From assembly GCA_963082975.1 (NCBI GenBank), contig OY720348.1:20265146-20329145 (forward strand): a stretch of 64,000 nt of DNA, in the 5' to 3' direction. The notes under the pieces are model-generated. The model did no database searches, had not been told where the DNA came from, and saw nothing but the letters and a program-made list of their open reading frames with translations. The stretch is from Labia minor (lineage: Eukaryota; Arthropoda; Insecta; Dermaptera; Spongiphoridae). Both the position numbers and the translations under genes were made by a program. Shown one piece after another: positions 7,851-46,696 of this stretch. Within the stretch, counting starts at the first letter, position 1. Every line of letters starts with the position of its first letter.

Positions 7851-7999
7851 TGTTGGAGTTTTAAATGTGTTTAATGAAAATGCACTGTTCGAGTTTGAAT
7901 GTGTTTTTAATACAAGGTGAACATTTAAACTAAGGTCATACTATAAATATATATACAGGTAAGAAGGTGCAGGGTTACCAACTTTAATATACTTTAACA
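7851..7999 (-). repeat. 3' LTR of the intact copia element (149 bp)
   Basis: Begins TGTTGGAGTT and ends ACTTTAACA on the plus strand, and matches 12274-12422 base for base as far as I can read. In element orientation it contains an A/T run TATATATATTTATAG about 45 bases in, the only TATA-like stretch. At 149 bp it is short, but copia LTRs are often a few hundred bases or less. Confidence 0.95.
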
Positions 8000-8009
8000 C
8001 ACCCCCTTC
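8000..8009 (-). other. Polypurine tract of the intact copia element
   Basis: On the minus strand it reads GAAGGGGGTG and abuts the TGTTAAAG start of the 3' LTR. This is the standard position for plus-strand DNA priming. Between it and the ORF stop (8010-8073) there is only A/T-rich 3' untranslated sequence with a long T run. Confidence 0.85.
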
Positions 8010-8073
8010 AAGTGAATAATTAAAATATAAATAAATACAATTTTACAATATAAACATTTTTTTTTTTTTTTAA

Positions 8074-11000
8074 TTAATTCATTTGCTTGAGTCTTCTCAT
8101 ACAATCTTCTTGCTTGACCTTTGAGACGGTTTTCGTGAGAAAATCAGCAGGCATATTTTCAGTGCTTAAATACTTTAATTTTATTCTATTTTCTTTTATT
8201 AGATTTTTTATAAAATGATGTTTAATGTCAATATGTTTAGTTCTATTTTTATAAGCATTGTTTTCTGCAATGAACTTAGCACCTTGGTTATCACAATATA
8301 TTGTCGTGCATTTATTATTTTTCTCGATATTTATTTCTTTTAGAAAATTTTGCAAATATATGGCTTCTTTGGCTGCTTCGCCCATAGCCATGTACTCTGC
8401 CTCCGTGCTTGAGAGTGCGACTGTGTTCTGCTTTTTGGAGTTCCATTGGATCACACCCCCTTTAAACGTAAAAGCGTAACCTGTTATGGATTTTCGATCT
8501 ATTATTGAGTTCCCCCAATCAGAATCAACATATCCACATAATGGAGTACTCGACCCGTCAAATTTTAAACCAATATTTTTGGATCCTTTTAAGTACCTTA
8601 AAACTCTTTTTGCCGCTATGAAATGTTCTTTATCGTAACAGTTGTTAAATTGACTTAAAAAGTTCACCGCATACGTTATATCTGGTCTTGTGCTGATTGA
8701 TATATAATTCAATGATCCTATTAATGATTGATAAGGATATTTATTTAAGTTTTCTTTATTTTCGGATTTATACAATTTCAAATTTTTCTCAATCGGAGTT
8801 GAAATTGTTTTGCAATCTTCCATGTTAAACCTTTTTAACAATTCATCAATATATTTGGTTTGATTCATACTTAAGACGTTTTTATCTCTATCGTATTCAA
8901 ACTTTATGCCTAAAAATTGATTTATTTCTCCCATGTCTTTCATGTTAAAATCATTAGACAAATTCTTTTTAAATTCATTAATATCCTTTTTATTTGATCC
9001 TATTATGATTATATCATCCACGTAAATGATTAATATTAATACGTTTTTATTATTATTATTATTATTTTTAATATATATGCATGGATCACTCTCCAATGGA
9101 GACATTCCTAAATTTTTTAATTTTATGTCTAATTTTTTGTACCATTGGCGTCCGGATTGTTTCAATCCGTATATAGCCCTTTTTAATTTTAATATATTTT
9201 TCCCTTTTTTAAAGTCTTTTATCATTTGTAATGCAATCTTTTTTATATTTTCATTTTCATTTTCGACTAAATCTTTCAATATGTCGTTAAACCCTTCAGG
9301 ACATTCCATGTAAATGTTCTCTTCCAGTTCACCATTTAAATACGCTGCCTCCACGTCCATTTGTTCAATGTACCACTTTTCTTCTATAGACTTAGCCATT
9401 AGTGTCCTCACGCTGCTCATTCTGGCGACAGGTGAATAAGTATCAAAATAATCTATAGAATAAGTTTGGCTATATCCCTTGGCGACTAACCTGGCCTTTT
9501 TAGTATTATCATTTTTGGTCGTTAAGACAAAACGACTACCCACTATATTTTGATTTTCGTGTTTCCTGACCATTGTCCAAGTATCGTTTTTAATTAATGT
9601 AATCATTTCTTTCCTCATGGCTGTTTTCCATAAGTTCGAGTCTTCTTGCAATAGTGCATCTTTAATTTTCAGTTCTACATTAAGTCCTTGGACCTCTCCT
9701 TCGGTCGTTTCTATCGAGAGTTCATCTTCTGAACTTAAGACATCACTGTCTCTAGAGCTGGGAATTGTTTCTTCATCATTTTCACTTTCGGATTTTTTGT
9801 ATTGATAGACTTTTCTGGGTCTTCCCCTATTTCCACTTTTAATCATTTTAGGACGTCCTCTTCCTCTCTGTTGGTCAATGTTATTTTCGTCTATATCACT
9901 TTCTAAAGATGCATCATTATTATGTTTATCAATCATTATGTCCAAGCTGTTGTATTTTGAATTTTCTTCTAATAAATCATTATATTTTAAATTATCTCCA
10001 TTTTTATTATGAAATTCGTTTATAAATTTAATATCTCGAGTAATATGTACCCTTCTGGTCATGGGATCATATACTCTATAAGCTTTGCTTTCCTCGCAAT
10101 AACCTATAAAAATTCCTTCAATTGTTCTTGAATTTAATTTATTTTTATTATTTTTATTTAAAAAATGTACTCTCATACCAAAAGTTCTTAAATGTGAGAC
10201 ATTAAATTTTTTGTTTGTAAGGATGTTATAAGGTATTTGTCCTTTTAAAGATGATGTTGGGCTTCTGTTCCTCAAATAACATGCAGTTATTACTGCTTCT
10301 GCCCAAAAGGAATGTTCTAGATTTGCTTGTATTAACATACATCTCGTCATCTCCAATAGAGTCTTGTTCATACGTTCAGATAATCCATTTTGTTGGGGCG
10401 TATAAGGAACTGTTAATCTTCGCTTAATTCCTGATTTTTTTAAAAAATTATTAAATCTATTATTAATGTATTCTTTTCCATTATCTGATTGCAAATATTT
10501 AATCCTTTTATCTGTCATGTTTTCAATATAATTTTTATATTCAATAAATGCTTCAAAAGCTTGACTTTTGTATTTTAGAAATTTAACTTCGCAATATCTG
10601 CTTGCTTCGTCTATAAAAGTAATGAAATATTTATTTCCACCGATAGACGTGGTTCTAAATGGTCCACAAATATCTGTATGGATTATTTCCAATATTTCTA
10701 AATTTTTCTGTGAATTTGAATTTTTAAAAGGTGTTTGAGATAATTTTCCTTTAATGCATATTTCACAATTATCTAAATTTTCATTTAATATACTTTGGTC
10801 TAAACCGAAAACTTGATCTGATTTGGTTATTAGTTTTAAATCTCTTTCATTTAAATGTCCGTATCTTTTATGCCATATGTCTAATTTTGATAATTTATTT
10901 TTATTTAAATAATATGAAAAATCATTTTTATCTTTATTTTTAATATTTTCATTTAAATAATATAATCCGTTCTCCTTTTTCTTAGCTGTAAACATTAGTT

Positions 11001-46291: not shown

Positions 46292-46411
46292 GATATTGAA
46301 GTAAAGTATAAGCCAACAGAAGAAATGTTCGCTGATGTATTAACGAAAGGACTTCCTTCAACGAAGCATGAATTTTGTTCGAAAGGACTTGGTCTGAACG
46401 TTTTGTATTAA
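46292..46411 (+). pseudogene. RNase H C-terminal remnant
   Basis: Forty in-frame codons ending at a natural stop, beginning DIEVKYKPTEEMFADVLTKG. This matches the end of copia polyproteins (compare KYLSTENMPADFLTK at 1340-1354 of the intact element). It shows that both ends of pol were kept while the middle was lost. Confidence 0.82.
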
Positions 46412-46431
46412 ATTCAATATCGACTAATTTT

Positions 46432-46440
46432 AAGGGGGCG
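46432..46440 (+). other. Polypurine tract of the deleted copia element
   Basis: AAGGGGGCG directly before the 3' LTR start TGTTG. Confidence 0.85.
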
Positions 46441-46696
46441 TGTTGTATTTTTAAAATTAGTCTCATATATTAATATGAAGAAACCCCCCTGGTGTCATTA
46501 CTTCAAAGCACTACTAGCTTTGAACAGCTGATCAAGGTCAAAACACACACTTTTATATTTCTATGCTGAGCGATTAACACGCAAGCAGAATACTCACTCA
46601 CCTATATGTTCATCTGTATATATTATCATATATAATAAATATTCTTATATTTAAATTACAATATATCTTTTATTAACAAAACCTCTAGATCCTACA
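46441..46696 (+). repeat. 3' LTR of the deleted copia element (256 bp)
   Basis: Base-for-base match to 43901-44156 in my reading; ends GATCCTACA. Confidence 0.95.

What the first reader, a model, noticed from the sequence alone, without database searches (positions are those of the whole stretch)
7851..46696. All three retrotransposons in an 81% AT satellite encode AT-hook-like motifs, and both defective ones kept them while losing the integrase core
Seen: RGRGRPK and NRGRPRK in the integrase tail of the intact copia protein (776-794); KKGPGRPK and KGRPKK in the deleted copia ORF (454-473); KKRGRPRKG at the end of the gypsy-like ORF (575-583). The last two come from different superfamilies and independent deletions, yet each joins an AT-hook tail in frame to Gag-protease. 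Known: AT-hooks bind the AT-rich minor groove, and the integrase C-terminal tail steers insertion in yeast Ty5 and, through chromodomains, in chromoviruses. Inference: these tails may tether particles or integration complexes to AT-rich satellite chromatin.
Basis: partly seen in the sequence, partly recalled or inferred. Interest (0 to 1): 0.75.

Follow-up and report, generated by a model that had tools for sequence, protein, structure and literature searches.

The report
Twin AT-hook integrases favour satellite DNA
In an earwig genome, three copia-type jumping-gene families whose integration enzyme carries two DNA-clamping 'AT-hook' motifs sit in an AT-rich satellite, about 1% of the genome, in roughly a quarter to a half of sampled cases, while none of 19 sampled copies of a family without the motifs does, which suggests a testable way for such elements to choose their landing site.

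Summary
The motifs are real, at the stated residues. In copia proteins they are not peculiar to this satellite: 98 of 120 listed relatives carry two or more GRP cores in the integrase-RT linker, 11 residues apart in 95 of 98. The two 'defective' elements are amplified non-autonomous families; their near-identical tails show recent spread, so selection cannot be judged. The host is an earwig. The satellite is about 1% of the 604-Mb assembly. After merging array duplicates and removing loci picked near the window, it holds 34 of 70 copia-1, 5 of 14 h1345 and 5 of 19 copia-2-family insertions, against 0 of 19 for a hook-less copia family, 0 of 4 for a fourth hooked family and 1 of 19 for the hooked gypsy family. 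The 13 copies dated are equally young in and out of satellite. Outside it, hooked copia insertions sit in locally AT-rich DNA; hook-less ones do not. Three hooked copia families thus favour the satellite, probably at integration, and the twin hook is the leading candidate cause. Causality is unproven: the control is one family from another clade, and the gypsy hook brings no clear preference.

The parts
1..7843 (.). 161-bp AT-rich satellite array (left part)
   Evidence: Tandem Repeats Finder; blastn coverage; 18.8-19.9% GC in the first 8 kb
12423..23145 (.). satellite array between copia-1 and the gypsy-like element
27364..43900 (.). satellite array between the gypsy-like element and copia-2
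46697..64000 (.). satellite array (right part)
7851..12422 (-). copia-1, copia element with one long ORF; LTRs 7851-7999 and 12274-12422 (identical), target-site duplication CTGAT
8074..12192 (-). copia-1 Gag-Pol ORF, 1372 aa
   Evidence: Pfam
9811..9867 (-). twin AT-hook-like module, residues 776-794, in the integrase-RT linker
   Evidence: AT_hook below Pfam cut-off
23146..27363 (-). gypsy-like non-autonomous element; LTRs 23146-23962 and 26547-27363 (one difference), target-site duplication ACGG
   Evidence: amplified deleted form
24306..26066 (-). gypsy-like ORF, 586 aa: Gag-like region, aspartic protease (below Pfam cut-off), rearranged fragments, hook
24393..24530 (-). stretch matching the region before the GPY/F-like domain of copy L129 (residues about 513-558)
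24318..24344 (-). single AT-hook-like motif, residues 575-583, near the C-terminus
   Evidence: same in the 12 copies where the tail was found
43901..46696 (+). copia-2, non-autonomous deletion derivative; LTRs of 256 bp, target-site duplication AATAT
   Evidence: amplified deleted form; full-length relative L014
44259..45806 (+). copia-2 ORF, 515 aa: Gag-protease part joined in frame to the linker that follows the integrase
45618..45677 (+). twin AT-hook-like module, residues 454-473
   Evidence: kept in 12 of 12 fetched deleted copies

Best explanation
Copia elements of a large group found mostly in arthropods carry a fixed twin AT-hook module in the linker between integrase and reverse transcriptase. 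In this earwig, three families with the module are found far more often than expected in the AT-rich 161-bp satellite and, elsewhere, in short AT-rich spots. The most likely mechanism is that the two hooks, left on the integrase C-terminus after processing, grip the AT-rich minor groove and hold the integration complex on such DNA. The deleted copia-2 family most likely uses integrase from full-length relatives (h1325) and so shares the preference; copia-1b keeps its own integrase region and would need RNase H. SHOWN here: conservation of the module, satellite excess in three families, none among 19 copies of the hook-less family, local AT bias, youth of the 13 copies dated. INFERRED: that the preference acts at integration, that the hooks cause it, where the polyprotein is cut, and supply in trans.
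For: Module: 98 of 120 listed relatives have two or more GRP cores in the linker, 95 of those 98 with 11-residue spacing and a shared pattern around it. Location: unique insertions in satellite, without loci chosen near the window: copia-1 34/70, h1345 5/14, copia-2 family 5/19, hook-less 0/19; Fisher against hook-less p = 3e-5, 0.008, 0.046. Collapsing all satellite copies of a family that share monomer position and orientation still leaves 24, 5 and 6 separate events, window copies included. Satellite is about 1% of the assembly: 29,358 exact 33-mers genome-wide, 243 in the window, about 52.4 kb of satellite there. Age: LTR pairs 99.3-100% identical in the 9 satellite and 4 non-satellite copies measured. 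Local AT outside the satellite: 63 hooked copia insertions 80-85% AT in the first four 5-bp bins against 71-75% beyond 100 bp (paired p = 3e-5); 19 hook-less insertions show no rise (p = 0.75); groups differ, p = 0.0008.
Against: The hook-less control is a single family lying outside the hooked group, so any other difference could be the cause. The hooked family h1340 has 0 of 4 in the satellite, and the one fetched copy of a further twin-hook family (L017) is outside it. The hooked gypsy family has 1 of 19. Within the satellite, insertion points are not more AT-rich than the monomer average (p = 0.28), and they cluster in part of the monomer (12 of 35 collapsed events within 15 bp, p = 0.003), which AT content alone does not predict. 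The local-AT test was not planned beforehand and used the 3' side only. Copies come from lists limited to the best-scoring candidates.
Confidence: 0.5

Rival explanations
1. The hooked copia group recognises a chromatin mark or protein of the satellite (heterochromatin, or centromere-like chromatin) through another part of integrase; the hooks only add general DNA affinity.
For: Precedent: the Tal1 integrase C-terminus is responsible for targeting CENH3 chromatin (passages of PMC12859917) and chromodomains recognise histone marks (passages of PMC12477314). The insertion hotspot within the monomer could reflect nucleosome position. Over 200 bp, non-satellite flanks are hardly AT-richer for copia-1 than for hook-less copies (0.753 and 0.736, p = 0.40, before the internal LTRs were dropped).
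Against: Local AT bias also appears away from the satellite; Pfam reports no chromatin-reading domain in the copia-1 protein.
Confidence: 0.27
2. Insertions land at random and survive better in gene-free satellite; the skew reflects retention, not targeting.
For: Satellite arrays are presumably gene-poor (inference), and some satellite insertions were copied along with the array (duplicate groups).
Against: The hook-less copia family (0 of 19) and the gypsy family (1 of 19) live in the same genome without such skew. Of 150 listed gypsy-type RT_RNaseH_2 places, 4 lie within 100 kb of a known satellite insertion, though that measure recovers only 45 of 69 satellite insertions themselves. Satellite copies are as young as the others (13 copies), and two hook-less copies have identical LTR pairs too.
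Confidence: 0.12
3. The basic GRP tails are nuclear-import signals or nucleic-acid packaging patches; the satellite link is coincidental.
For: Short basic clusters are typical of nuclear localisation signals (recalled, not tested here).
Against: The module is more rigid than basic charge alone would need: spacing 11 in 95 of 98, and outside the GRP letters used to select it Arg 89%, Thr 83%, Gly 98%, Lys 91% at fixed places among 95 proteins.
Confidence: 0.1

Closest known systems
Tal1 and related centrophilic copia elements of Arabidopsis
   Same: LTR retrotransposon inserting into tandem satellite; the determinant lies in the integrase C-terminal region (passages of PMC12859917; that Tal1 is a copia element is recalled).
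   Different: Tal1 follows CENH3 chromatin; here the candidate is a twin AT-hook module and the satellite forms many blocks. Whether this satellite is centromeric was not tested.
Chromodomain integrases of chromoviruses (Ty3/gypsy)
   Same: Integrase part steering insertion into heterochromatin (passages of PMC12477314).
   Different: A histone-mark reader in gypsy elements, against short candidate DNA-binding motifs in copia elements; Pfam reports no chromodomain in the three ORFs.
Ty5 of yeast
   Same: Copia element whose integrase C-terminal tail targets silent chromatin (recalled).
   Different: Ty5 uses a short peptide binding a silencing protein, not DNA (recalled).
TR-GAG and similar non-autonomous LTR elements
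   Same: Short LTR elements with a Gag ORF and no full Pol, amplified as families (name seen in search listings; definition recalled).
   Different: copia-2 and the gypsy-like family add an AT-hook-like tail in frame to Gag-protease.
AT-hook proteins such as HMGA
   Same: Basic motifs around a GRP core that bind the AT-rich minor groove (recalled).
   Different: Here two motifs at fixed 11-residue spacing sit inside a retrotransposon polyprotein; binding not shown.

Membership tests
Ty1/copia LTR retrotransposon (copia-1) | Gag, integrase and RT in copia order in one ORF, paired LTRs, short target-site duplication | tested here: met
   Pfam; LTRs and duplication
Ty1/copia non-autonomous derivative (copia-2) | Shares LTRs and gag with a full-length copia relative and lacks the integrase core | tested here: met
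   L014: LTR 98.1%, first 1.3 kb of internal region 98.4%; no rve
Ty3/gypsy derivative (gypsy-like element) | Gypsy-type protease and integrase C-terminal domain | tested here: inconclusive
   Protease match below Pfam cut-off; some of the 7 homologs are named Ty3-I Gag-Pol; copy L129 has a GPY/F-like integrase end before the hook, recognised by eye
AT-hook protein | GRP core flanked by basic residues | tested here: met
AT-hook protein | Scores above the curated Pfam AT_hook cut-off | tested here: not met
   10.9 and 12.9 bits against 17.4 for two tails, none for the third
AT-hook protein | Selective binding of AT-rich minor groove | not testable with these tools
   needs binding assays
Integrase-tail targeted retrotransposon | Insertions strongly enriched in one chromatin or sequence class | tested here: met
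   copia-1, h1345 and copia-2 family; not seen for h1340 (0 of 4) and not clear for the gypsy family (1 of 19)
Integrase-tail targeted retrotransposon | Changing the tail changes the target | not testable with these tools
   needs experiments

The most novel reading that the evidence does not exclude
The twin AT-hook is a dedicated target-selection module of a widespread group of arthropod copia elements. It reads AT-rich DNA directly rather than a histone mark, steers integration to AT-rich satellites where the genome offers them, and is carried along in Gag-protease-hook elements that spread using integrase supplied by full-length relatives.
Probability: 0.38. Interest if true: 0.82.

Novelty: new variant of a known kind. 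Interest (0 to 1): 0.62.

Why it matters
How retrotransposons choose safe landing sites is known in detail for a few yeast and plant elements (recalled; plant cases). If the module causes the preference, a 20-residue DNA-binding motif conserved across arthropod copia elements would be a third type of integrase tail next to protein-binding peptides and chromodomains, and easy to test. It would also help explain why AT-rich satellites hold young copia elements. Three full-text searches that paired AT-hook with retrotransposon, copia or integrase terms listed no paper whose title or abstract start makes this link (the papers were not opened).

Tried and rejected
Rejected: that the copia hooks are special to this satellite (98 of 120 listed relatives have them). 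Rejected: that hooks in both 'defective' elements show independent retention under selection (gypsy tails identical over 39 nt in the 12 copies where the tail was found; copia-2 module 1-3 nt differences in 12 of 12 fetched; too little variation to judge selection). Of 14 long gypsy stretches fetched (L129-L142), L141 has satellite on the inner side and L142 gave no match to the ORF tail. Rejected: that the two short elements are isolated wrecks (LTR pairs at similar spacing recur).

Corrected on the way: the counts included LTRs followed by a primer-binding site (5' LTRs, so no outer flank) and copies whose LTR end could not be found; one search drops 5 of the first kind (1 h1345, 2 hook-less, 2 copia-2) and 5 of the second (1 hook-less, 4 copia-1; two of these four had satellite beside them). 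L009 (hook-less, non-satellite) was left out; L024 was placed by eye and may be off by a few bases (non-satellite either way). Gypsy copy L141 looked non-satellite because its outer side is internal; one search shows satellite at its LTR end. L145 was dropped as uninformative, and in L146-L148 the LTR edge was not in the stretch. Monomer positions contained strand errors and were redone. Not counted: L017 (a further twin-hook family), L018 and L019 (no twin hook), all three outside the satellite. Not fetched: 7 places (C10:10900439, C2:20731628, C9:11082238, C9:11100306, C1:60965184, C1:50360381, C4:27883059), of other or decayed families.

Full report
WHAT IS THERE. The window is G000:C10:20265146-20329145 of a 604-Mb genome. 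Its mitochondrial COX1 is closest to earwigs (Labidura japonica 89%, Doru luteipes 88%), so the host is an earwig whose species I cannot name. The window is a 161-bp satellite with three long interruptions: copia-1 at 7851-12422, a gypsy-like element at 23146-27363 and copia-2 at 43901-46696. LTR pairs are identical or differ at one base, and target-site duplications read from the flanks (CTGAT, ACGG, AATAT) show clean insertion into the satellite.

THE COPIA HOOKS BELONG TO A LARGE GROUP. Of the 120 listed relatives of the copia-1 protein (237 found among the scored candidates), 98 have two or more GRP cores in the stretch between integrase and RT, 6 have one and 16 none. The same proteins have 203 GRP in 16,347 linker residues and 7 in 145,268 others. 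Spacing is 11 residues in 95 of 98 (10 in two, 3 in one), and the surroundings are shared: arginine before the first core, a Thr-Gly in the spacer, Lys and then Tyr or Phe after the second. On a quick tree of 114 proteins (108 relatives over 1250 aa and 6 from this genome, midpoint root) one group of 100 holds all 93 rows with twin hooks, together with 4 rows with none and 3 with one; 12 rows with none and 2 with one lie outside it. Four hooked families of this genome (copia-1, h1340, h1325, h1345) are 40-47% identical to each other and 31-40% to the hook-less family (best local alignments), whose linker has no GRP.

THE 'DEFECTIVE' ELEMENTS ARE SPREADING FAMILIES. copia-2 matches a full-length relative, L014 of family h1325 (LTR 98.1%, first 1.3 kb of the internal part 98.4%), which carries the same twin hook. 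Among the 40 LTRs listed (of 111 candidates) are 13 other pairs 2.46-2.54 kb apart, the spacing of the deleted form, against two pairs with full-length spacing. The gypsy-like form also recurs: 12 other pairs 3.2-3.5 kb apart among 40 scored LTRs of 481 candidates. The tail is unchanged in the 12 gypsy copies where it was found, and the hooks are intact in 12 of 12 fetched copia-2 copies, but the DNA is identical or nearly so, which shows recent descent, not selection. A third amplified derivative, copia-1b, lacks about 0.7 kb at the end of RT/RNase H but keeps the hooks.

WHERE THEY INSERT. From the listed RVT_2 places (150 of 368 candidates scored, list cut) and LTR searches I fetched flanks of individual copies. 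A flank was called satellite if more than half matched this satellite. With duplicates merged (95% or more identical over 100 bp), and without loci I had chosen for lying in or near the window, satellite insertions are 34 of 70 for copia-1, 5 of 14 for h1345, 5 of 19 for the copia-2/h1325 family, 0 of 4 for h1340 and 0 of 19 for the hook-less family. Before merging and before removing those loci, but after dropping 10 flanks that could not be used, they are 51 of 87, 8 of 17, 7 of 21, 0 of 4 and 0 of 19. For the gypsy-like family 1 of 19 informative copies is in the satellite, besides the window copy. The satellite amounts to about 6.3 Mb, 1% of the assembly, by scaling 29,358 exact 33-mers to 243 in the window's 52.4 kb; diverged arrays would be missed. 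If all satellite copies of a family at the same monomer position and orientation are treated as one event, 24, 5 and 6 events remain for copia-1, h1345 and copia-2, window copies included.

WHY THIS IS PROBABLY TARGETING. Passive survival in gene-free DNA should apply to all families, yet the hook-less copia and the gypsy family do not show it. Nine satellite copies (five copia-1, four h1345) and four non-satellite copia-1 copies all have LTR pairs 99.3-100% identical, so the satellite copies are not an old residue; two hook-less copies have identical LTR pairs as well. As a rough further control, 4 of 150 listed gypsy-type RT_RNaseH_2 places lie within 100 kb of a known satellite insertion, a measure that recovers 45 of 69 satellite insertions. 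Flanks taken near these showed satellite on both sides at two sites (three places) and on one side at the third; a further place near the end of C4 had satellite on one side (6 of 8 stretches). I did not check those families for hooks, and gypsy copies in unsampled arrays would be missed.

WHAT THE HOOKS MAY READ. Outside the satellite, 63 hooked copia insertions have 80-85% AT in the four 5-bp bins next to the LTR, falling to 71-75% beyond 100 bp (paired p = 3e-5; copia-1 alone 0.005, copia-2 0.011, h1345 0.16). The 19 hook-less insertions show no such rise (p = 0.75); the difference between groups has p = 0.0008. Nine gypsy copies with a clear LTR end also look AT-rich at the site (78-89% in the four bins), differing from the hook-less copies (p = 0.02) but not significantly from their own surroundings (p = 0.26) (all). 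This is what AT-hooks should do. Against it, insertion points inside the satellite are no more AT-rich than the monomer at large (p = 0.28), and they cluster in part of the monomer (12 of 35 collapsed events in 15 bp, p = 0.003), which suggests a further preference such as nucleosome position or local sequence. Over 200 bp the non-satellite flanks of copia-1 and hook-less copies hardly differ (0.753 and 0.736, p = 0.40).

LIMITS. One hook-less family is one evolutionary contrast; it differs from the hooked ones in much besides hooks. Only 3' flanks were scored. Lists are capped at the best-scoring candidates. h1340 has too few copies to count either way. The local-AT comparison was noticed in the data and then refined, not planned. 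Pfam's AT_hook model matches two tails below its cut-off and the third not at all.

VERDICT. Integrase-tail targeting is a known kind; a conserved twin AT-hook as the device, tied to satellite insertion in an animal, was not found in the searches I made (AT-hook with retrotransposon, copia or integrase; centrophilic, satellite and Tal1 terms; all seen as listings of titles and abstract starts, plus passages of two papers).

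Noticed in passing
G000:C1:477 onward; also C10:0.125-0.30 Mb, C2:0.25-0.47 Mb, C9:59.9 Mb, C4:86.43 Mb: The satellite begins within 500 bases of the start of contig C1 and lies near several other contig ends as well as in inner blocks: possibly subtelomeric.
   Followed up: partly
G000:C6:55.66-55.70 Mb, C6:66.35-66.37 Mb, C1:120.26-120.40 Mb, C1:19.91-19.93 Mb: copia-1 copies with nearly identical flanks, apparently multiplied together with the satellite array that holds them.
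   Followed up: partly
L011 and other copia-1b copies: An abundant copia-1 derivative with about 0.7 kb missing at the end of RT/RNase H, twin hooks kept in L011; 45 of the listed RVT_2 places look like this type by score and frame length.
   Followed up: partly
monomer positions about 129-143 (counted from ATGCCG): Insertion hotspot shared by copia-1 and h1345, at the TATTCATATTTCTTAC part of the monomer.
   Followed up: partly
L129, 1386-1802: A gypsy-family copy in which the stretch before the hook is a complete-looking GPY/F-type integrase end, in one open frame with the hook.
   Followed up: partly
G000, 31 COX1 matches: Besides two matches on C14, 29 mostly short COX1 matches are scattered over the chromosomes: probably mitochondrial pieces in the nuclear genome.
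   Followed up: no
L052 (G000:C5:53273909-53278754): Two h1345 copies about 4.4 kb apart that seem to share a middle LTR, a tandem element.
   Followed up: no
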